The notes below the pieces were generated by a model that saw only the letters and a list, made by a program, of their open reading frames with translations, searched no databases and was not told the DNA's origin. A stretch of 64,000 nt of DNA from Prototheca cutis (lineage: Eukaryota; Chlorophyta; Trebouxiophyceae; Chlorellales; Chlorellaceae): contig BCIH01000007.1 in NCBI GenBank assembly GCA_002897115.2, forward strand, positions 832,227 through 896,226. The letters run 5' to 3'. Positions 5,646 through 57,729 of this stretch are shown here, in pieces; position 1 is the first letter of the stretch, and each line of letters opens with the position of its first letter. The position numbers and the translations under genes are program-made.

Positions 5646-7119
5646 TCAGAGGTCGACCTGGCGGGACAGCCCCGCGGCGGGGTTGGCAGCGGGCTTGGCG
5701 GCACGGATCTCGTCGTCAGCAGAGTCGCGCTCAAACACGGCGGCGGCGCCCATGCCTGAGCCGATGCACATGGACACGACACCAAAGCGGCCGGCCTTGC
5801 CGCGGCGCTTGAGCTCGTTCAACAGTGTGGCTGTCTGGCGCGAGCCGGTGCAGCCGAGCGGGTGTCCCAGCGCGATGGCGCCGCCGTTGGGGTTGACCTT
5901 GTCGGCGTCCAGGCCCAGCGCACGAATCGAGTAGAGGGCCTGGCTGGCAAAGGCTTCGTTGATCTCGTACACGTCAATGTCCTCCAGGGTCAGGCCCGCA
6001 GCCTTGACAGCCGGTGGGATGGCGGCGACGGGGCCGACACCCATGATCGCGGGGGGGACGCCTGCCACGGCATACCCGCGGAAGACGAGCTCGATGGGCA
6101 GACCGCGGCGCAGGGCCTCGCGCCGCGTCATCAGCATGACGGCCGCAGCACCGTCGGTGGTCTGGGAGGATGATCCGGCCGTGGTCAGACCGCCTTTCTT
6201 GAATGCTGGCTTCAGCTTGGCCAGCGACGCGACGGTGACGTCGCCGCGGATGCCGTCGTCCTCGGAAATGACGACCTTGCGCTCGACGCCATCCTCGCCC
6301 TTGAGCACGGTCTCCACGGGGACGATCTCGTCCTTGAACTTGCCCGCCGCGCGCGCGGCAAAGGCCTTGCGGTGGCTGGCCGCCGAAAACGCGTCCTGGT
6401 CCTCGCGGGTCAGGCCGTACTTGGCAGTCACGTTCTCGCTGGTGATGCCCATGGGCACCAGGCAGTCGGCGGCCTCCTGGCAGCTGGTGACCTTGGTGTT
6501 GACCGCGCCGTCCCAAGCCATGGGGTTCTTGGTCATCGTCTCCACGCCGCCGGCAATGCCCACGGTGTAGAAGCCCGCGCGGATGGCCGAGGCCACCGCC
6601 GCAATGGCCTGCAGGCCGGACGAGCACTGACGGTTGAGGGTGTGCACGGGGACCGTGTGCGGGAAGCCGGCCAGCAGCATGGCCATGCGCAGCTCGTTGG
6701 CACGCTGGGCAGAGGGACCCATGACGGAGCCAAACACGATGTCACCCACAGCCTCGGGCTCCACGCCAGTGCGCTTGAGCGTCTCCTTCAGCACGGGGAT
6801 AATCAGGTCCTCCACAGGGGTGTCCTTGAACCCACCCCGACGGGAGCGGCACAGGGGGGTGCGGCACGCCGACACGATCACCACGTCATCGAGGCTGCCA
6901 GCCTGCCGCTGGTAGGCAGAGGTGGGGGCCGCGTTCATCTCGGGGGTTGCGCCCTCCTGCGACGAGGATGCCGGAGATCGAGGTGTCAGAAAAGGGACCC
7001 GGACCGTGGCAAACGGCATGCTCAGTCGTGAACCAACATCCAAGACCACATGATCAAAACCAGCATACCTGATGCAGGTGCTGCAGGAGGACCTGCTGGC
7101 GCTGACCGGCCCTGTTCAT
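5646..7119 (-). CDS. KAT: Peroxisomal 3-ketoacyl-CoA thiolase with N-terminal PTS2
   Basis: Catalyses the last step of fatty-acid beta-oxidation, thiolytic cleavage of 3-ketoacyl-CoA to acetyl-CoA. Exon 2 (6956-5646) carries the thiolase fold with the nucleophilic Cys in NRQCSSG, EINEAFA, GHPLGCTG and the second active-site Cys in VSMCIGSGMG. Exon 1 (7119-7069, 51 bases) encodes 17 residues including R7-Q8-x5-H14-L15, a perfect peroxisomal targeting signal type 2, as in plant KAT2/PED1. The junction CAG|GTATGC...CAG|GAG is phase 0 and gives 453 residues, close to plant homologs. The long frame continues upstream of exon 2 only by chance. Convergent with HYPK, divergent from glyoxalase II. Confidence 0.95.
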
Positions 7120-7644: not shown

Positions 7645-7922
7645 ATGAGAGCATTTTTAATACTGTGTTGTTTTACTGCAGTGTGGTTTGCGAGCGCTGC
7701 ACGGAGTCGGAGGCGAGACCCTGTGGGTTTGGCCGGCCTGCCTGGATCCGATCCTACCCGGTGCAGCTCTCTGTGGCCCTCGTTCCGGACACGTTGCGCC
7801 CAGACCTGCGCCGCTCCCCGCCGCGGATTTCTGGTGCTGGCATCTGCCATGGGTGGGCTGAACATCGACCGGATCCCCTGTCTCTCCGATAACTACGGTA
7901 GGTGGGGGGGGGGGGGGGGGGT

Positions 7923-7972
<50 letters not shown>

Positions 7973-23631: not shown

Positions 23632-23792
23632 TCAACTATACTCGGACATTTGCACTTGATGGTACACCGACTCCGACACCAACGGGATCTCGCCATAGTG
23701 GCCCCTGCAGCACATCAGGAATCGAGGTAAAAGCTGTCAATGTGGGGATCGCAAGCAGCACCCATATTGACTTGAGCACCAGGGGGGAAATG

Positions 23793-23854
<62 letters not shown>

Positions 23855-25191
23855 ACTGCATGTATGGTGGACGGGAGCTCCCCACCGACATGGACAGCTG
23901 GTGGGGTGCATGACAGAGCCCGCCCGGGCACCTGCTGCTGTGGGCATCTGAGCAAATTAGGGCCGACAAAGGCACGGAAAGCAGCCAACGTCGGTGAGTA
24001 ATGAGCCCTTTGAGGTTTTGATTGGCGGTCGTGCAGCGTTCTTTCTTTCTTACTTGTGTGTACAAGCAATGGCAACCCAACCCGCGGCATGCGGGCCTGG
24101 CTGAAAGGGTTCCCCCATGACAGGCGGTCACCCCTCCAGTAACCCCATCCCCCCCCCCCCCCCCACACACACACACCCACCCACCCACCGACCCCCCTGG
24201 AAACAAACAAGCAGTATCCATACCGCAGTGTCCAGAAGACGCAATAGAGGATGGATGAGAAGCACATGACCCAGGTGATCATGTCCCACCACTCCTTGAG
24301 TGGCGACCAGACGACTTGGGGCGGGATGTACGTCCGCAGGATGTGGATCAGCATGACCATGATGTCCAGCATCACCGCCTGCATCGCATTAAACCGCACA
24401 AAATGGTGCAGCTTCTTGTTCTTCACGACGCCGAGGAACATGACAAAGAAGATGACCAGGGGGGCCAGCTGCGAGCTAAAGTACAGCTTGGCAATGGGGC
24501 CTGTGATGATGATGGGAGTTGGCGGGTTTCGTGATTGAGGGTGAGAGCATTGACAAGGCGGGGAGAGGTGGAGGGACCCATGGTCAAGGACCACCACCTG
24601 AAAAAGACCCACGGTTCTGGCCCAAGGATCAAGCACAGCATTGACAACAGTCAGCCATGTCACCCACCCACCACACACCTGCCGAGAAGTAGACAAACAT
24701 GAAATTTCGGAACCGCATGTAGATTTGCCTTCCTGTGGAGAGGCTGTCTACCCAGGGAACCATGTAGAACAGTGCTGCCACGATGCGCCAAAACATGGTG
24801 GGGGGTCGCTCCAGGGCCGCCTTGACAGCCTCGTCCTCATCATACTCGCGTTGGGGACCCGCGGCGGGGATCCACCGGTCTGGGACACGGCCCCGAGCAA
24901 GAGGCCTGCGCGGCAGAGAACCTGGACACAGCGAGCAACATGAGGAGGAATGACGCAGTGCGATCGCATGTGCAAAAAACCAGGCATTTCCATGCATCAA
25001 CTGGGTGCATCAATAGGGTCTCCTCGCGCGCCCGCACACTTACCCGCCAACCCATTGGGACTTGGACCGAGCGCCAGAGCGGGCTTCAACCTGCCACCGC
25101 GTGATGCTGCCGTGAACGGCTTCAATCCAACCAGCCTGCGGCATGCAGAGCCGGCGCTGGCGAGCCCGGGGGCAAGCCCACTCGCCACCAT
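23632..25191 (-). CDS. TIC20: TIC20 family inner-envelope translocon component
   Basis: Forms part of the protein-conducting channel of the plastid inner envelope. Exons 25191-25044, 24921-24679, 24500-24224 and 23704-23632 join in phase to 246 residues. The first exon and the start of the second are Ala/Gly/Arg/Ser-rich, a plastid transit peptide. Then four hydrophobic helices: MVPWVDSLSTGR, GPIAKLYFSSQLAPLVIFF, the family signature HHFVRFNAMQAVMLDI, and ITWVMCFSSILYCVFW, ending with GEIPLVSESVYHQV. The last exon is recoverable only by splicing across an intron that holds a (GT)n microsatellite and a C-run. Length fits the TIC20-I/IV group. Confidence 0.92.
23796..23853. repeat. (GT)n microsatellite in TIC20 intron 3
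   Basis: About 29 uninterrupted GT dinucleotides on the plus strand, (AC)n in the transcript. A C-run followed by (CA)n lies in the same intron near 24149-24176. Confidence 0.95.
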
Positions 25192-27409
25192 CACAGAGGA
25201 CGGCAGGCGAGTGTTTTGGTCCACTGGCCTCAAGTTTCGCTTTTGCGAGGACAAACCTAAAAATGAAAAGTCAATCGTGTCATGATGAACAGTGGCTTGG
25301 GCTGATGGCATGCATGGGCGCATTGGTCGTTGCTCCAGCCAAGGTCGGCATTCACCAAAGAAAGAGGTGGAGTACGATTCCAGACAAACTGGGGCGCAGC
25401 CCCCAACAGCGCCCGCTCTCCACCGGGGAGAGGAGGCGCCCCACGAGGTTACCGAGAAGCGAAGTAACTGGGCATTGCCTCACAGCACGTGTTCAATGGT
25501 ACTGTTCCGTGGCGCAGGGCCTGCGGCAAATCCTGGTGATCAGATCATATCAGATGGAGCGCCTGGGAGGTGGAGGTGCGGAGGCAAGCTTGGTTTTGCG
25601 ATCAAAAGGCGGCGGCCTGTCGCCGGTCAGGACCAGTCTCTCCCCAGGTGGTGGATGTTGCACGCGGCGTTGACGTCGCGGTTCCACACCACGCCACACC
25701 TCTGGCATTTGAGGATGGCGTACTTGTTCCGGGCAGTGCTGCTGTTTGCGTTGCGCGCAGTGCTGCAGGAGGGCCCACTGTCAACTGCGGGGCATCACGT
25801 CCACCGGCCTCGTCCCAGCCTGGAGCACCTGTTGCGCTTGATGCCGGCGTACCCCCTGGGTGGGTGTCTTCTCTTCCCATCCGCGCCGCATCTCGAAGGC
25901 ATGCCTCTTGCGCGTGCTCGGCCACCTCAATGCCACCCCCGGCATGCACGTCCCAGGGCAGCTGCCAGTGCAGCCCTCCCTTCGAGGTCGTCCTCATGTG
26001 GCAGCAGTGCGTTCTGCAGGGGCCGCCCGGTGCCGACAGAGGAGTTGTCCCCGGCCCTGTGACAGCTGGTGCATCGACCAGTCCAATGCAGTGGCTGCAC
26101 TATCCATTCCTGTGGTCCAGCTTCAACGCAGGATGAGGAGAAGGTGTTTTGACTGTGGACATCAACCAACACCAGCCACCACAGCTCTTCAGCCCGACGA
26201 TGACGCCCAGCACATGGACGACTGGCACGATCCGAACCAGCCGGCGGACTGCAGCCGGGACAGCCGCCGGCAGTGCTGGCCCAACCCCCGCTATGCCGAG
26301 CAGGGTTCACCATGAGATATCCACGCTACCAGACCCCAACAGGCTGCTGTGGACAGCCAGCTGGTCTTGCTGACCCCGAGCGCGGCATCCCACAGTGGGG
26401 ACGATGCTGGACCTTTAACCCCTGCCCCTCGCCACCCCCTGAAAGACTTTGTCATCAATGGCATGGTGCAGTGCCACATGCTAAAGCACCCAGGCACACC
26501 GAAGGATGACCATATTCGATTCACTCGAGGAGTGCTAAGCACCCGCTCCCTGGAAACCGTCGACAAGTGGGCGGCAGAACTGGAAGAAGAAGGGCTCTGG
26601 GCCAAGATGCCTCCCAACTCAGGCTCTGGATCCAAGATGTGGAAGATCGGGTGGCGGAGACGCAGCTGCCAGAAGTACAGGTGGAGGACCACAGCGAGAC
26701 CAGGTGCAGCTGCAGAGGCCCAGAAAACGGTGGCCACGACATTGCCTGTTGCTGAACTTGATGCTGATCCCTAGATAGATTGACCTGTCTTTGTCTGCAC
26801 AATACTTCCCTTGATTTGGCAACAATGGGCAATTGAATGAAGATATGGAAGTGTAAGACGAGATTTTCTTTTGAAATCAGCCCAAACAGCACCTGCTCTA
26901 GGGCCCAAACAGTGTATGAACCCTAAGGCGCTTGNTGGCGGCGCGTTTGAAGAATGCCAAGGGCCNCCGAGCGAGAAACCGACATAATCGCAACTCCCAT
27001 CTGCACCCTCAATCCTTTCATTATCTTGATTTCTGGAGTTAACAGGCGTTGCAGGGCCCTACACGCGCGGCTTGGTGGCCCCCCCCCCCCCCCCCGCAGC
27101 TGCGCAGCCCCCAAACGTTGAAGGGCGATTGCCCACGAACGCACTCCTTCCTGGCCCCGCCCTGTTCTGAGACTGGACTTTGGTGCGGAATAAACATCAT
27201 CGTGCAGTCGTACAAGGGGGTGCTGCACGGGAGGGCCTGAAAGGGATTGTCGAATATATTTCACCAAAAGAAAGTGTGGACCTCGTGTTTGATTTCTGGG
27301 CCCCTCCACCAAGAACAGGCCGGAGAAATGGGGAGGCTTCGCGCAGAACATGGTCATTCTGGGCAAGCCGCGAATCCGTTTACTGTAGGGCGATGTCCAC
27401 TCGCTTGAC
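25192..27409. other. Gene-poor 2.2 kb stretch between TIC20 and the MT-A70 gene
   Basis: Contains only frames without family support, two ambiguous bases (about 26935 and 26966), a 17-base C-run near 27079, and the minus-strand zinc-ribbon fragment listed separately. This composition fits decayed mobile DNA plus the two flanking promoters; that reading is inference. Confidence 0.4.
25627..25794 (-). pseudogene. TnpB/Fanzor (OrfB-type) zinc-ribbon remnant
   Basis: An in-frame segment on the minus strand reads KYAILKCQRCGVVW followed by NRDVNAACNIHHL and then a stop. CxxCG next to NRDxNAAxNI is the hallmark of the C-terminal zinc ribbon plus RuvC-III aspartate of TnpB and its eukaryotic relative Fanzor, RNA-guided nucleases of IS605/IS607-type elements. 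Just upstream is a tandem STARN repeat and a possible first Cys pair (CPAVDSGPSC), then a TGA. No RuvC-I or RuvC-II segment could be read in any minus-strand frame upstream, so this is either a fragment, a frame-disrupted copy, or one exon of a split gene. Similarity is short, so chance cannot be fully excluded. Confidence 0.5.
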
Positions 27410-28536
27410 ATGACCGCACTGGACGCCCAGCTGCTGAGCGTCGACACGCTGCTGCACAGCGACGCGACGGCCCTCGACCGGGACTGGGCGGGGCTGGATG
27501 CGGATGCGCTCCGGCAGGAGGTCGACCGCTACCGCCATGCCATCTCCTCGGTAGCCCAACAGCTTACCCAGCTGGGTCAGTAGAGCATGTAGTGGATGCA
27601 TGCAGCAGTTGATGGGGCAGGGCCATGGGGCTATGAAGAATAACGGGCAGCCGGGCGCTGGCACCCACTTGCCTGCCTGTGTCCAGCCATGACTGGGCCA
27701 GCAGCAGCGTCTCCAGCCAATGTTGAGTGCAGTCTACGAACTCTCTTTCCCACACATCCAGGTGTGGCCGTCCAGCTGGACTGGGCCTCCCCTGAGACAC
27801 GGGACTGCCCAGGCGATGATGCTGACCGCGACGCAGAAGTGGAAAGCACGCTCGCGGAGCTCGATCCCGCACAGTGGCAGGTGGTTTTTGGTGGTGTATT
27901 GCACTGCAAAGGTGTCCCTGCCTGCAGCATGGCCTTGTGCATGTATGTGTGTGCGTGTGTGGTGGGCTGACGGTGCTAGGGTTTGTAGTTCTGGATCAGC
28001 CCCAGCTCCATGTGCTCTGTGACTGAGCGCCCAAACATTCAGATCTCTCTGCAAACACCCACAGACAGAGACATATCCCTCCAACACCCACAACTCCACC
28101 TCGCTGGCAGGTCCCGCCGCACTGCATCCCCATCCACGCAAACGTCACAACGTATGACTGGGAGCCCCTGATTGCAGCCACTCGGTTTGACGTGGTGATG
28201 ATGGACCCACCCTGGCAGCTGGCCACGGCCAATCCAACCCGTGGCGTGGCGCTGGGCTACTCTCAGCTCACTGACGCCGACATCGCACGTGTGCCCGTGC
28301 CGCGGCTCCAGGATTCAGGCTTTCTTTTCCTCTGGGTCATCAACGCAAAGTTCCAGTTCTGCCTCGACCTCCTTGACCTCTGGGGATACACGTACGTTGA
28401 TTCGGGGGGGGGATGGAATGGGAAAAGGGGAATGTGTTATGTCTTTGCCTGTGGGTGCCGCCTGTCATGCCCCGCCTGGTGGGTTTATGGACCTGCCTGA
28501 CGATGGCACACACACCTCCGGCAACCCCCCTGCAAC

Positions 28537-28590
<54 letters not shown>

Positions 28591-29369
28591 CATACAACCA
28601 CTGTACAGGCTTGTCGACGAGATTGTGTGGGTCAAGATGACGGTGAACCGGCGGCTGGCCAAGAGTCACGGATTCTATCTGCAGCATGCCAAGGAGGTCT
28701 GCCTGGTGGCTCGCAAGGGAACTGGCCCAGACCTACCCGCACAGGGCAATGGCGCATGGTCGGACGTCATCCTCAGGTGCCTGCGCTGGGTTGGTTGCTT
28801 GCTTTCTTTGTGTGTGTCGCGGGGGGGGCCCCCGATGAAGACTTTTACAGCCACACCCGCCGGAGAGCTGGCGGGTTATAGGTTAAACCACTGCATCAAC
28901 ACCTTCCCCTCTCACAAGCAAATTCTCCTGCAGCGAGCGCCGGGGTCAGAGTCAGAAGCCAGAGGAGATGTACGAGCTGATCGAGCGCCTGGTTCCGAAC
29001 GGTGGGTTTTGGGGGCCGGCGGTGGTGGTGCGAGGGTGCCGTCGAGCAGGGCACTCGATGACAGCGTGTTGTGGTGTGCATGAGGCACCTACTGGGGTAT
29101 GGCGGCCTGGAGAATTCCCTTTCAGCACGTCCTCTCCCGCATGTCAGCAGGATCGATCGCTGGTCCATTACGAAATCAACGCAACGCACACACCCACCCT
29201 CACTGCAGGCCGGTACCTGGAGATTTTTGGGCGCAAGAACAACCTGCGCGACTATTGGGTGACCATAGGGAACGAGGTCACGGGCAAGGGCTTGCCCGCC
29301 AGCGATGCCAGCGCTCTGCGGCACGGCGTCATGGTCCCAGGCGCCGTCTATGGCCGCAGCAACTCGTGA
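27410..29369 (+). CDS. MT-A70 family adenine N6-methyltransferase, MTA1/AMT1-like
   Basis: Exons 27410-27575, 27762-27880, 28111-28391, 28609-28776, 28934-29001 and 29209-29369 join in phase to 320 residues. The catalytic DPPW lies at 127-130 and is followed by QLATANPTRGVALGYSQL, then FLFLWVINAKF, VDEIVWVKMTVNRRLAKSHG, YLQHAKEVCLV, the SQKPEEMYELIERL helix and LEIFGRKNN. METTL3 has an MPYGT/LPYGT-type segment after DPPW and METTL4 differs again; the NPTRGVA-type segment, the YLQHAKE motif and the small size without CCCH zinc fingers fit the MTA1 (AMT1) clade that methylates DNA at ApT in ciliates, with relatives in green algae and early fungi. RNA as substrate cannot be excluded. Intron 3 contains a 49-base C-run. 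Confidence 0.88.
28539..28587. repeat. Poly-C tract in intron 3 of the MT-A70 gene
   Basis: 49 consecutive C on the coding strand, about 20 bases before the AG acceptor, where it may serve as an extreme polypyrimidine tract. Confidence 0.9.
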
Positions 29370-37561: not shown

Positions 37562-40500
37562 TCAGATGATGGAGCCTAGCCAGAGCCTGGCACCATACTG
37601 TTTCCTGGCCACTCTATCAACGGCATCTCGGACTCGGGAGGCGATCTGTGGGTCCAGTACGGTGGCCAGACTTCGAATGGCAACTGCGACACCCTCCAGG
37701 TCCCAGGCGAGCCCTTTGCTGAGATGGTGGATCAGGGCCGCAGCAATGTGCTCGGCGTCATATACTGGCAGCACTGCTTGTCCTTCTTGCCGGCAGGAGC
37801 TGCCCCCAAACCTTGCCAGCATCTCCTTGGGCAGGGTCGCCAGTGACCGGGGCTGGAACTTGAGCAGTTCCTCAGGAACCCCAGGGACAATTGATGGCGG
37901 CTGGACCGCCGACTGTACCGGCCTGACGTCGCCGCTTCCATTCATTGCCCGGCCAGCGGCCATTGCCCCGCTGCGTTGGAGAAGCCGTCGGCGCTGGGCC
38001 GGGCCCAGGTCGTTCATGATTTCTTCCTGGACTTTGGCCGGCAATTCGGCGAACACTGCAGGGTCCACACGCACGTCACGGAGCGTCCGACTGCCCGTCG
38101 GCCGGGGATGCCCCTCGTCCTCACTGTGGTGGTTGGTTTCCCTCTTTCTTTTGGCAGGGCCCTTGTGGCCGGTCCGACTTGACGGTCGGCTGCTGGTGCT
38201 GCTGCCGGTGGCCGGGAGCGTCAGCTGGCCACCGGCAGTCCCGCCCGCCGGCACCCGGCCGCCAGCGCTACTGCCCGCTGACGCCGGCTGCAGGATGCCC
38301 AGTGTCCCTGCACCCCCCCTTCCCTCCAGCTGCACGCCTTGAACCTTGTAGGCCTGCTCGATCTCACGGCGCAGATGCCAGGGCAGCTCTGCCAAAACTC
38401 CCAGATCAAGCTTGGAAGCCGAAGGCAGGGCTGTGATTGGGGTGCCGGCGCACTCGTCTCGAGGTTGCATGCCAGGCGGCCCAGGCTGAGGAGGGGGGGT
38501 AGCGCTGCACACCGGACTTGGCGATGGCACCGTCGGCGCTGTCCCTCGTCGCTCCTCCAATTTCAGCTGTGGCAGAACTTTGCCTGTTGTGCTAGCAGTG
38601 CCGTTCAGAAGCTGCACTCTGTTGGGCCTTTCGGGGACAGCAGTTGCTCCCACTCTCTGCGCCGCCGGCTCAGCCGCCTCCAACTTCTCAGCCCTCTGTC
38701 CCCCAAACCTGCTTCGAGGCAGCGTGCCCAGGAGCTCACGCTGGAGCTCCCAGGGAAGTGCGGACATCACACGTGCGTCAATCTGGCTCAGCGACAGGTC
38801 CTGGAAGCCAGCGAGAAGCTGGGTGTGCCTGGTACGCTTCGGTGTTCCAGCGTCAGCGTTGTCGTCCATTTCAGCGTGCTGCTCTTCAGCTCGTCCCTTG
38901 CCGTTCTGCTCGGTGCCACCACCGCAGGGCATGTTGGGCTCGGAGGGACGTGAGCCCAGCAATGACTTAAACGATTGCCCTTGACCGCGGCTAGAAAGCC
39001 CAGCATGCACGTCGTCTTCGGAAGACGACGACCAATCCAGCGAGGGGCTGGCACTCCGCGAACTCGACGTCAGCATGTCTGGAGCAGGGGCAGTGTCTGC
39101 TTGTGCCAGAGCCAGGCAGTTCTCATCCTGATGATGTGCAAGGGCCTGGGGGGTTCCAACATCACCAGCCGTTTTTGCCGCGGGAATTGGTATGGATGTA
39201 TCCCCCGCTGTTGCTTGAGCGCCAGTGTGGCTGTCCACCACTGCTGAAGCCTTCTGGACAGGAGCATCCTGCCCAGCCCTACTATGGACCAGTCCACGTC
39301 CATCAGCAGCGGTGCTGCGACCCCTGTGGAGCAACAGGTCAGCCAGGGCACCGTTCGACCCCCCCTGGGCCTTGGACGTGCCACGGGTGCCCCGCGCCCC
39401 CGGTCCCTCCAGCCGTGTCATCTGCGGGAGAAGGAAAACCGGGGCTGTGCATGTGTGTGGGTGTGGGTGTGGGTGCGCGTGTGCGTGCGCTTGTGCATGT
39501 GCATGTGCGTGTCCATGTGCGTGCGCGTGTTCGCGGCGAAAGACGGATTTAAAAGCTAAACCACTATCAGTGAGACCTCAGAAGACAGGCCATAGCATGT
39601 TTCGGGCTGTGCGGCCCATTGCATCCCATCCTACCCCCAAATACCCGGCATGCACTTTCGCAAAACCACCCCACCCACGCACCACGATGCCAAGGCCACG
39701 GATTTCCTGGGGCGGACACCGCAGACCGATCAGCAGCTCCCTGGCCGAACGCTGCAAGGTCAAGAGGTTCGCCGGGCACTGTGCAAACGCAGTGCTGCGG
39801 GACAGATTGTCGCAGATGCCCGACCCCAAGAACTTGGTTGGCTGGAATTCTCCCTGCTTGGAGCGGTTTGGGTGAGTGGCAGGCTGGGCGGTTGCCCGTC
39901 GATCCAAACCATTGACCGCGGAGGAATCAAGGACTCCTCGCGAGTTCATCTGCTGCATCCGAAGTAGATCCAATGCCGCCACTAGCACAGCACACCATTA
40001 TTCAGACCTCCCGCGCCCGATCAGCAGGCCAATCAAGAAGGACACCCACCAACCCCACGCACCTGTCTCCGGCGCTTGAGTTTGAGTGTGAGGTGGCGGC
40101 CCTGCACGCCGGCGGTGTCCATTCGAGCCCAAAGCTCGCTCGCAAGCTTGTCGACAAAGGCCTCGGCTTCGGCGGGGGNATCAAAGCGCACTCCCCAGCT
40201 GATTTCCGCACCGATGCTCTTACGTGGCGGCGGCGGTTGTACGCGCCGACGGTCGATCCCAGCTGCCGCATCCCATAGCGCGGCACCCGTTTTGTCCCCG
40301 AGCGCCGCCTGCAGTCGTGCTCGTGTCCAGCCCTGGCGGGAGGTACAGGGGCTTTGTGCGAATGTTTTCACATTGACAGTGCACTGCAGTTATGATTGTC
40401 GTGGGAACAAACAGCGCCACTCCCACGCCCACCGCTTGTCACCGCTGGCACAGCACCACCAAGAACAGACCTGGAGGTCGGATACGAGGCGGAGCCCGGA

Positions 40501-42459: not shown

Positions 42460-42520
<61 letters not shown>

Positions 42521-52443: not shown

Positions 52444-54717
52444 TCAGCTGTACCGGCGGTAGCTGGGGTCGTGGGCAGAGGCCAGGATCTTAGCCATGAT
52501 GTCGTGAGGCTGGGGCATCTCCGTCGCGACCCCGGCGTGGTAGGCCATCGTGGCGACGGCCGCCGCCACGCTCGCCGCCACCTCCTGCAACGCGCTCACC
52601 GGTGGGTACAGCGCCCCCAGCGCCAGGTCCCTTTCTGCAGCATGGTGTTTCTTAAAGGTTTGTGGCTGAGAAAAAACAGTATGGGGCTGTGGTGATTGTC
52701 AGAACACACGGGAGCCTGGTCCAAGGCACATGTTCTTGTCTGGTTAGCAGGAGGCCCATGCCCAATGGCCCATCCGACCCCTTGCGTTCCTCCAAACCCA
52801 CTCGCCCCCCCGGGGGAGGGGGTAAAATAAATGAATCAACAAACACAGCACAGGGAAATAAATGTATCAAAANAAAACAGCAAACCCGCCAGCAATAATC
52901 CAACGCACCAGTGACAGAATCGGCGACGGCTCGGGCTGCGGCGAGGAGCATGTCTTCGCGCAGGCGCGTGGCGCGCGTGACCAGGAGTCCCTGGCAGAGT
53001 CCCGGGAAGATGTACGCGACGTTCGCGGCACGCGTCTCGTGCTGCTCTTCTCCAGCCACTTGGACCGAGCGGCAGGTCATGGCGTCTGCAAACAGCGCGG
53101 CGCCATTGGACCACTCGTACGCGTCCTGTGCGGCGAGCTCGCTAAACCCGGCGATGCCGTCGGCGTCGTGCTGACTCAGCGGCATGAGCACGGGGCGGGG
53201 GCTTGCAGCGGCCATTTCGCGGACGACGTCGGCGGTCCACGCCCAGGCCGGGACGTCCTTGGCCAGTCCGATGAGCACGGTGGGCTGGACTTCACGGACC
53301 GCAGATAACAGATCAGGACACAGCGGCCCATCCTGGAGGTAGGGCAGGAGGTGGTCGGGCACAGTGTCAAGATCCGGACGATCCTGGACCATCAGGCCCG
53401 CGCGGTCCACAAACCAGATGCGTTTGCGCGCGTCCCACACGGTGCCCCCACGGTGCTCCCGCTGCACTGCCTCCTCAAGCAGCTCCGCCACTGCGGCGAG
53501 TTCGGCGTCGTCGCCCACGAGCATAAAGCGGTGCGCGGACAGGCTGCCGCCCGTGGCCGCCAGCGCGGCGTACAGACCCGCGAGGACTGTGGCCGGCAAC
53601 CCGTGCACCGCATCCGAGTACACGGGCATGTTGGCTCGGTGATTGACAATCAGCTCCTGCGCAGCCCCGTAACTCATGTCCGCGACATCGACCACCAAAC
53701 TTGTGCCAAAACGGCGCCGGACGGCAGCCATGAACTCTTCGCGCAGCGCCCGCGCGGGCTCGCCGCGTTCGCGGCGGCGAGGCAGCCCGACGTAGAGGGA
53801 GTCCGACAGCAGGCGTGCGTTGTCGGTGCCGACGTCGAGGACGACGGGCAGGCATCGCGAGGGGTTGATCCCGCCAGCCACGGCCAGCAGCGCCAGGCGC
53901 GTCAGCGGCGACCCGATGGCCTGCACGCCCCAGTCCCCCGCAGCACCGAGGCTCTCGCCGTCTGTCACCGACACCAGTTTCACGCGGCGCATGGGCCAGT
54001 TGCGCAGCAGGCGCCCCACGCCCCCCGCGTCCTCCAGGCTCACAAACATGCCCCGCGGCAGAGCGCGGAACATCAGGCTGAACCGCTCGCAGTACCGCGC
54101 GGCGTTCGGGTGCTGCAGTACCGGCAGCAGCTCGGTCAGGTTGCCGCGCATGACGTAGTGAAACAGGCGCTCGTTGCGTTCCGCCAGCTGCAGCAGATAC
54201 GCCAGGCGGTCCACGTCGCTGCGCTGGGACCGCAAGTTGACCATGACGCGCTCCGCCTGAATGTCCTGGCCCAGGACCTTGGACGGGAGCAGGCCACGCA
54301 GGAACAGGCGGTCCCGCTCCTCCCTCGTGAATGCAAGTCCCTTGTTGTACTGCATACAATACAGCTAGCACAGGTGTGATTCAATATCAATCGTAATGTG
54401 TGTGCGGGATTTCCCTTGTTTGGCAAGAGTACAAGCAGAGTCACCTCACCACCGCTTCCTAGTAAGGCCCCACCACCACCCGCCCACCCATCCACTGCTC
54501 CACTACCAACCTTGGAGTTTCGGATGAGGTCCACGCCGGTGAGCACGGTGGATGCCCAAGGGGGCACCACCGCGTCCTCTCGCTGGCCCTCGTCGCCGTC
54601 ATCGTCCGCCTGGCGCCCAAACCCCGTGTACAGCGTGGCGCAACCCCATTGGACCCGGCCTGGCCGGGGCTGGCCTAGTCCAGCAACCCGGCGCAGCAGC
54701 GCCCGGGCCAGTGGCAT
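52444..54717 (-). CDS. Malic-enzyme-family protein with altered active site (probable pseudoenzyme)
   Basis: Exons 54717-54511, 54349-52909 and 52634-52444 join in phase to 612 residues. Mitochondrial-type presequence (PLARALLRRVAGLGQPRPGR). The malic-enzyme frame is clear: LIRNSK|YNKGLAFTREERDRLFLRGLLP, RGMFVSLED, LVSVTDGE, CLPVVLDVGTDN, LSDSLYVGL, PATVLAGLYAAL, RPVLMPLS, VAYIFPG and LYPPVSALQEV. However the catalytic Tyr motif (VYTPTVG) reads VLQHPNAAR, the catalytic Lys (PVGKL) is Arg (PLTRL), the metal site FEDF is VADM and NDDIQGT is YSDAVHG, and the nucleotide loop GAGEAA is VGDDAE. Malate decarboxylation is therefore unlikely. One ambiguous base lies in intron 2. Confidence 0.85.
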
Positions 54718-56101: not shown

Positions 56102-57729
56102 ATGTCTCCCCCGGCTGAGAAGTACACCCTGCCGCCGGTGTTCGGTAAGCGCCGGACCATTGTTGTGGATGGTAGAACTGCATTGTTGCGTTGCCTTCGT
56201 CGGGGACCGATGCCAGCCCTGGGCCTGGGATGCGCTGCCCCGGGGCTCGCGGGGTGCTAGGTTTCCGGCCCGAGGCCAGCTGGCACCTCCATCGAATCGC
56301 CCCAAACCCAACACCATCTGCGCAGGCACTCAGGGCCAGATCACCCAGCTCCTGGATCCGTTGATGTTCCAGCGCTTCAGCTCTCTGGACCAGGTACGAC
56401 GGGCGAGGCGGTACGGCTTGCGGCCACCCTGTCCGGGGCCAAGGGCCAGCCCGACTGGGGGGCTTGAGCATCGAGCGGGTTGGGTATCGCACCCACTTCC
56501 CGACTGTCCGCCGACGATCTTGCTTGGATCATTGTGTATTGGGTATGAGGTCTGATGAGTCAGCATGCTCTGTGTAGGGCTGCGACAGCATGGCGTTTGA
56601 CGCTGGATGGGGTGATGAGCCCAAATCCCCCCCTCCCCCCGTGGTCAAACCTGACTCTTGACCTCACCCCCCTTGTCACACACAGAGCGGCAAGATCTGC
56701 GCCGAGTACGTTTGGATTGGCGGCACTGGCTCCGACCTGCGCAGCAAGACCAAGGTCCTGAGCAAGATCCCCGCCTCTGTGGCTGACCTGCCCGCCTGGA
56801 ACTACGACGGTTCCTCCACGGGCCAGGCCCCCGGCGACGACTCGGAGGTGTACCTGGTGGCCCGTGCCATCTACCGCGACCCCTTCCGCGGCGGTGACAA
56901 CATCCTGGTGATGGCTGACGCGTACGAGCCTCCGCGCGTGAACGCGGACGGCACGGTCAGCGACCCCGTGCCCATCCCCACCAACACGCGCTTTGCGTGC
57001 GCCGAGGCCATGGAGAAGGCTGCGGGCCAGGAGCCGTGGTTTGGCATCGAGCAGGAGTACACGGTGCTGGACGCTCGCACCAAGTGGCCCCTGGGCTGGC
57101 CCACCAACGGGTACCCCGGTCCCCAGGGCCCCTACTACTGCGCGGCGGGCGCGGGCAATGCCATCGGCCGCGACCTGATCGAGACGCACCTCAAGGCGTG
57201 CCTGTTTGCCGGCATCAACATGTCTGGCATCAACTCTGAGGTCATGCCTTCCCAGTGGGAGTACCAGGTGGGCCCCTGCACGGGCATCGACTCTGGTGAC
57301 CAGCTGTGGATGTCGCGCTACATCCTGCTGCGGCTGGCGGAGCTGTACAACGTGGAGGTGAGCTTTGACCCCAAGCCCATCCCCGGCGACTGGAACGGCG
57401 CCGGCGGCCACGTCAACTACTCCAACAACGACACCCGCGCCGAGGGCACGGGCTGGGACGCCATCCAGAAGCAGGTGGAGAAGCTGGGCAAGCGCCACGC
57501 CGTCCACATCGCCGCCTATGGCGAGGGCAACGAGCGCCGCTTGACGGGCAAGCACGAGACCTCGTCCATCCACGACTTTTCGTGGGGCGTGGCCAACCGC
57601 GGCTGCTCCATCCGCGTCGGGCGCATGGTGCCCGTCGAGAAGAGCGGCTACTACGAGGACCGCCGCCCCTCCTCCAACCTCGACCCCTACCAGGTCACCC
57701 GCCTCCTGGTCGAGACCACCCTGCTCTGA
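56102..57729 (+). CDS. GLN1: Glutamine synthetase, type II (GLN)
   Basis: Condenses glutamate and ammonium using ATP. Exons 56102-56144, 56326-56393 and 56686-57729 join in phase to 384 residues. Signatures: [38 protein letters not shown], the catalytic [20 protein letters not shown], the glutamate/ATP loops ([29 protein letters not shown]) and [10 protein letters not shown]. Only about 35 residues precede the conserved core and they are not transit-like, so it is most simply the cytosolic isoform; Chlamydomonas GLN1 has similar length. Codon use is strongly GC3 biased, as expected for high expression. Confidence 0.96.

What the first reader, a model, noticed from the sequence alone, without database searches (positions are those of the whole stretch)
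27410..29369. Green-algal MTA1/AMT1-type MT-A70 methyltransferase, candidate DNA 6mA writer
DPPW at residues 127-130 followed by NPTRGVALGYSQL, plus a YLQHAKE motif and no zinc fingers, separates it from METTL3, METTL14 and METTL4. The MTA1 clade was characterised in ciliates as the ApT 6mA DNA methyltransferase, acting with a second MT-A70 subunit and two DNA-binding partners; relatives occur in green algae and basal fungi. If the algal gene has the same function it links this lineage to germline-independent 6mA writing. The partner subunits are not in this window.
Basis: partly seen in the sequence, partly recalled or inferred. Interest (0 to 1): 0.75.

Follow-up and report, generated by a model that had tools for sequence, protein, structure and literature searches.

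The report
Algal DNA adenine methyltransferase gene (AMT1/MTA1)
This is an intact gene for AMT1, an enzyme that puts a methyl mark on adenine in DNA; the enzyme is already known from green algae, fungi and ciliates, but here it sits in what looks like a colourless alga in which the related messenger-RNA methylation enzymes were not found.

Summary
Six GT-AG exons at 27410-29369 (+) encode a 320-residue MT-A70 protein with the quoted motifs. It is of AMT1/MTA1 type: Tetrahymena MTA1 scores 237 bits, METTL3 140, METTL14 57. Every organism name shown among the 120 listed of 869 homologues is a green alga, and trees put it beside Chlorella. Seven of eight SAM-contact residues of the ciliate enzyme are identical, and its three DNA-facing lysines stay basic. 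Fresh here: no light-harvesting or Rubisco small-subunit match in the genome, so it is probably a Prototheca; the only other MT-A70 gene found is a METTL4; METTL3, METTL14, WTAP and VIRMA were not found, while YTH and METTL16-type domains were. These absences lack a eukaryotic positive control. MTA9, p1 and p2 could not be tested properly.

The parts
27410..27575 (+). exon 1 (residues 1-55): start codon and predicted N-terminal helices 3-15, 19-27 and 31-54
27762..27880 (+). exon 2 (residues 56-95): acidic linker, low model confidence at 65-98
28111..28391 (+). exon 3 (residues 96-189): start of the MT-A70 domain; DPPW at 127-130 and NPTRGVALGYSQL at 136-148
28392..28608 (+). intron 3, 217 nt, with a run of 49 C at 28539-28587
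28609..28776 (+). exon 4 (residues 189-245): K198/R204/K207 (DNA-facing lysines in the ciliate enzyme) and YLQHAKE at 212-218
28934..29001 (+). exon 5 (residues 245-268): ERRGQSQKPEEMYELIERLVPN, with SAM-contact residue S251
29209..29369 (+). exon 6 (residues 268-320): SAM-contact residues R276, N279, N289, E290; C-terminal tail and stop TGA

Best explanation
The gene encodes the catalytic subunit AMT1 (=MTA1) of a eukaryotic DNA adenine N6-methyltransferase. It binds SAM at the DPPW pocket and methylates adenine at ApT in double-stranded DNA, probably preferring hemimethylated sites so that the mark is copied after replication. In ciliates its N-terminal helix docks p1 and p2, and an inactive MT-A70 partner (AMT6/7=MTA9) helps hold the DNA. 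In this alga the mark is expected in linker DNA just downstream of active transcription starts. Shown here: gene structure, family, conserved residues, predicted N-terminal helix. Inferred from relatives: DNA substrate, ApT specificity, partners, location of the mark.
For: Intact six-exon gene. Score order MTA1 237 > METTL3 140 > METTL14 57 > MTA9 26 bits. In alignment A1 of 25 sequences (the window, 19 with a green-algal name, 5 unlabelled) DPPWQLAT and NPTRG are invariant. Of the eight SAM-contact residues that PMC9852454 lists, seven are identical and D182 is N106, as in 23 of the 25 sequences of A1; the three DNA-facing lysines K280, K286, K289 are K, R, K. The AlphaFold model has a helix at 31-54 with pLDDT about 85-89 ahead of the domain, where ciliate MTA1 has its p1/p2-binding helix. 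The first nine of the 50 Foldseek rows shown are Tetrahymena MTA1 entries. Trees place it among green-algal sequences with Chlorella (96/89; 94/86; 94/96). Algae with reported ApT or periodic 6mA include C. reinhardtii, C. variabilis, prasinophytes and Auxenochlorella (passages of PMC12695648, and of PMC12633428).
Against: No native-DNA methylation data for this genome. MTA9, p1 and p2 not identified. The trees lack AMT6/7 and AMT2/5, hold only two METTL3 rows and at most one METTL14 row, and contain long branches; the smallest group holding the window protein is unstarred, and the green-algal group as a whole is unstarred there (94/96 and 90/94). In one search the best tree does not show all 20 AMT1-type rows as one clade (holding them together is not rejected, p-AU 0.437). 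The AU test does not firmly reject METTL3 joined to the window branch (p 0.0484; 0.0858), nor METTL4 joined to it (p 0.161). METTL3 follows closely in Foldseek (1.0e-18 against 5.1e-22), and model confidence is moderate (mean pLDDT 70, pTM 0.58).
Confidence: 0.86

Rival explanations
1. The protein is an AMT1 by descent but has been recruited, wholly or in part, to RNA m6A, filling in for METTL3-METTL14, which this genome seems to lack.
For: A METTL3 query matches only this gene; METTL14 and WTAP searches give nothing and VIRMA only a 7.6-bit match with a stop inside, yet a YTH-domain gene is present.
Against: A METTL16-type (PF05971) domain is present and could supply m6A (function recalled). 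The AMT1 motifs are the same as in algae with reported 6mA. YTH domains need not read m6A (recalled: fission yeast Mmi1).
Confidence: 0.06
2. It is an ordinary METTL3-type mRNA m6A methyltransferase; several databases label its homologues 'mRNA m(6)A methyltransferase' or 'mettl3'.
For: Shared DPPW fold; METTL3 structures match at 140 bits and follow MTA1 in Foldseek; database names.
Against: 97 bits less than ciliate MTA1; no CCCH fingers; NPTRG and YLQHAKE where METTL3 reads ELPYGT and HWLNHGKE; the two METTL3 rows sit together on a long branch apart from it (100/99, 95/77, 100/100), though AU tests do not firmly exclude a join (p 0.0484, 0.0858).
Confidence: 0.03
3. The gene is a relic: the AMT1 protein persists but the pathway (MTA9, p1, p2) has been lost and little 6mA is made.
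For: No second MT-A70 partner found.
Against: MTA9 is too divergent for the probes used: the METTL14 query does not list ciliate MTA9 in the PDB even at E 10. Reading frame and catalytic residues are intact, and a close relative keeps 162 of 169 compared residues.
Confidence: 0.05

Closest known systems
AMT1/MTA1 of Tetrahymena thermophila (PDB 7yi8, 9u9e, 7f4l)
   Same: MT-A70 domain, DPPW, NPTRGVALGY/QPSRGVAIAY, YLQHAKE, SERRGQSQKPEE; 237 bits over residues 95-291; a helix N-terminal to the domain
   Different: 320 against 372 residues, with a C-terminal tail after residue 291 beyond the end of the ciliate chain; SAM contact D182 is N106 and K286 is R204; partners unverified
Green-algal AMT1 (Chlorella vulgaris P0001, C. 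reinhardtii P0074)
   Same: 66% and 56% identity over 98% and 99% of the query; same motifs
   Different: Host here appears non-photosynthetic and METTL3/METTL14 were not found in it
METTL3 (human; a budding-yeast homologue P0345)
   Same: DPPW-type fold, 140 bits to human METTL3
   Different: RNA enzyme with CCCH fingers (recalled); lacks NPTRG and YLQHAKE
METTL4 (own genome C11:583262-584382)
   Same: MT-A70 family
   Different: DPPWENRSVKR motif; METTL4 rows form a separate 100/100 branch

Membership tests
AMT1/MTA1 | MT-A70 domain with intact DPPW | tested here: met
   PF05063 E 3.4e-37; DPPW 127-130
AMT1/MTA1 | Closer to ciliate MTA1 than to METTL3, METTL14, MTA9 | tested here: met
   237 against 140, 57, 26 bits; Foldseek ranks 1-9 are MTA1, rank 10 METTL3
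AMT1/MTA1 | Groups with AMT1 sequences in a tree of MT-A70 families | tested here: inconclusive
   Lies with Chlorella in the green-algal group (96/89; 94/86, unstarred; 94/96, unstarred); but AMT6/7 and AMT2/5 not sampled, all AMT1 rows not one clade (p-AU 0.437 for holding them together), and AU tests with METTL3 p 0.0484/0.0858, with METTL4 p 0.161
AMT1/MTA1 | SAM-contact and DNA-facing residues of the ciliate enzyme | tested here: met
   7 of 8 SAM residues identical, D182 is N; 3 of 3 lysine positions basic (residues from PMC9852454)
AMT1/MTA1 | N-terminal helix that binds p1 and p2 | tested here: inconclusive
   Helix 31-54 predicted with pLDDT about 85-89; binding untested
AMT1/MTA1 | Partners AMT6/7 (MTA9), p1, p2 in the same genome | not tested
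   No partner sequence was at hand as a query; MTA1, METTL14 and PF05063 searches found none, but METTL14 is insensitive to MTA9 and MTA1 finds it only at 26 bits
AMT1/MTA1 | Methylates ApT in DNA | not testable with these tools
   Needs native long reads or an enzyme assay
METTL3 | Closest similarity to METTL3, CCCH zinc fingers upstream (fingers recalled) | tested here: not met
   (upstream in-frame stop)
METTL14 | EPPL in place of DPPW | tested here: not met
   DPPW present; 57 bits only; EPPL seen in the METTL14 chain
METTL4 | Groups with METTL4, DPPWENxSVKR-like motif | tested here: not met
   The METTL4 is a separate gene on C11; the window protein has DPPWQLAT. The AU test alone does not exclude a join (p 0.161)
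AMT2/5 | C-terminal ZZ zinc fingers | tested here: not met
   Pfam scan shows MT-A70 only; feature taken from PMC12695648

The most novel reading that the evidence does not exclude
A non-photosynthetic alga has discarded the METTL3-METTL14 mRNA m6A writer but kept AMT1 with METTL4, METTL16-type and YTH genes, so that AMT1 is its main N6-adenine methyltransferase and either carries a DNA-only 6mA system or has taken over RNA sites that the YTH protein reads.
Probability: 0.2. Interest if true: 0.5.

Novelty: new member of a known kind. Interest (0 to 1): 0.3.

Why it matters
It extends AMT1 to a lineage that, on this evidence, has lost photosynthesis and has a small genome, which suggests that the 6mA pathway is kept under genome reduction. 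If the loss of METTL3-METTL14 is confirmed, the genome gives a natural separation of DNA 6mA from METTL3-dependent mRNA m6A, two marks that are easily confused in assays.

Tried and rejected
METTL3 identity rejected (scores, motifs, no CCCH fingers). METTL4 identity rejected: that gene is on contig C11. A pseudogene is rejected: open frame, GT-AG splice sites, high conservation to P0260. The search for a second MT-A70 partner with METTL14 failed its own control (ciliate MTA9 is not in the PDB list), so its silence is not used. NCBIfam gave no match (a library for prokaryotes). The first tree (33 rows) held long rows; for (28 rows, cropped to the catalytic domain) I dropped meta341, meta344, meta346, meta75 and meta2, and for (24 rows) dropped METTL14 and the five METTL4 rows, restored meta2 and added Botryococcus. 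Alignment A1 holds the window protein and 24 of the 120 homologues listed; 749 of the 869 found were not listed. P0260 was left out of all trees because its frame runs through introns (seen). The neighbour frames were looked at only for context: 5 of 10 had no Pfam match.

Full report
What is there. On the plus strand, ATG at 27410 opens a gene of six exons with GT-AG introns of 157-230 nt, ending in TGA at 29369. It encodes 320 residues. The start is bounded by an in-frame TAG at 27386. GC at codon positions 1, 2, 3 is 69, 44 and 79%, as expected of a coding sequence in a GC-rich genome. Pfam sees a single MT-A70 domain over residues 121-290.

Which family. Against solved structures the protein scores 237 bits with Tetrahymena MTA1, 140 with METTL3, 57 with METTL14 and 26 with MTA9. 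A second search limited to longer proteins (111 found, all listed) added early-branching fungi, Blastocystis and the ciliate Stylonychia, and, well below them, a budding-yeast mRNA m6A methyltransferase, P0345 ('METTL3' for P0345 and 'Oxytricha-like' for P0303 are my labels). In trees of 33, 28 and 24 rows the window protein falls among green-algal sequences next to Chlorella. Caveats: AMT6/7 and AMT2/5 are not in these trees; several supports are below the tool's star; the AMT1 rows are not one clade in the best tree (p-AU 0.437 for holding them together); and AU tests do not firmly exclude attaching METTL3 (p 0.0484, 0.0858) or METTL4 (p 0.161) to the window branch. I take this as uncertainty about where distant outgroups attach, not as evidence for those identities, since the scores are clear.

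How it probably works. Paper PMC9852454 (Results section read) names the SAM contacts D182, V183, D209, S332, R357, N360, N370, E371 and the positively charged residues K280, K286, K289 of Tetrahymena MTA1. In the window protein these are N106, V107, D127, S251, R276, N279, N289, E290 and K198, R204, K207. The single SAM-site change, D to N, is the rule in the relatives aligned: 23 of 25 sequences have N and the two Picochlorum rows have D (read). The AlphaFold model has a well-predicted helix at 31-54, then a poorly predicted acidic linker and the catalytic domain, matching the position of the ciliate helix that is needed for p1 and p2 binding. Foldseek's nine best matches are MTA1 structures, one of them bound to hemimethylated DNA; METTL3 follows at rank 10. 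Global superposition is poor (TM 0.49 by query for the best row), as the model is of moderate confidence.

The genome. The window lies in a 19.89 Mb, 23-contig genome. No light-harvesting match (PF00504, E up to 0.001) and no Rubisco small-subunit match (PF00101, E up to 10) was found, though a TIC20 plastid import domain is encoded in the window. The METTL4 on C11 is closest to an Auxenochlorella protein, at 48%. A table in PMC12636532 (passages seen) lists Prototheca cutis at 20.0 Mb and 61.3% GC; the window has 60.7%. So the source is probably a Prototheca, perhaps P. cutis. This name is inference and no tool gave it.

The rest of the adenine-methylation set. In the same genome MT-A70 searches find only this gene and METTL4. 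A METTL3 query hits only this gene, at 38-46% identity in three pieces, so a true METTL3 should have been seen. METTL14 and WTAP gave nothing and VIRMA one 7.6-bit match with a stop inside. These searches work exon by exon, score only the best candidates, and the control genomes named in their answers are prokaryotes, so absence is likely but not proven. A YTH domain, a METTL16-type domain (PF05971) and cytosine methyltransferase domains on three contigs are present.

What is known already. PMC12695648 (abstract and passages seen) reports AMT1 across eukaryotes, names C. reinhardtii among its bearers, and finds robust 6mA only in AMT1-encoding species (15 species with AMT1, 3 without), at ApT and downstream of transcription starts; it says p1 and p2 occur only with AMT1 and that AMT6/7 tends to co-occur. 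PMC12633428 (passages; the same work as PMC12636532) reports 6mA at ApT in Auxenochlorella, with far fewer sites methylated and a noisier signal than 5mC. A review, PMC11065753 (passages), names green algae as a place to look for such enzymes. I found no report on 6mA in Prototheca: 'Prototheca'+'6mA' (4 papers, 3 listed) and 'Prototheca'+'DNA methylation'+'genome' (24 papers, 10 listed) showed only the Auxenochlorella paper as relevant by title and abstract; I did not open the others, and the library is open-licence only. The finding is thus a new member of a known kind, with the apparent METTL3-METTL14 loss as its one fresh aspect.

Noticed in passing
G000:C11:583262-584382 (locus L005): A METTL4-type gene, 48% identical to an Auxenochlorella protein; the only other MT-A70 gene found in the genome.
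   Followed up: yes
G000 whole genome: METTL3, METTL14, WTAP and VIRMA not found, while a YTH-domain gene (C3:810795-811193) and a METTL16-type gene (C2:120213-121148) are present.
   Followed up: partly
G000 whole genome: No light-harvesting or Rubisco small-subunit match: a probably non-photosynthetic alga, Prototheca-like in size and GC.
   Followed up: partly
No AMT1 labelled Auxenochlorella among the 120 listed of 869 or the 111 found, though that genus is reported to have ApT 6mA and its METTL4 is in the database (P0121); its AMT1 may be unannotated or mis-modelled, or unlabelled.
   Followed up: no
window 28539-28587, 42461-42519, 7904-7968: Long C or G homopolymers (49 C in intron 3 of this gene; 59 C; 18 and 46 G), possibly assembly artefacts or real tracts.
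   Followed up: no
window 5649-7115 (-), 23740-24747 (-), 37565-39577 (-), 52655-54364 (-), 56662-57726 (+): Frames with thiolase, TIC20, ubiquitin-binding (UBM), malic enzyme and glutamine synthetase domains.
   Followed up: no
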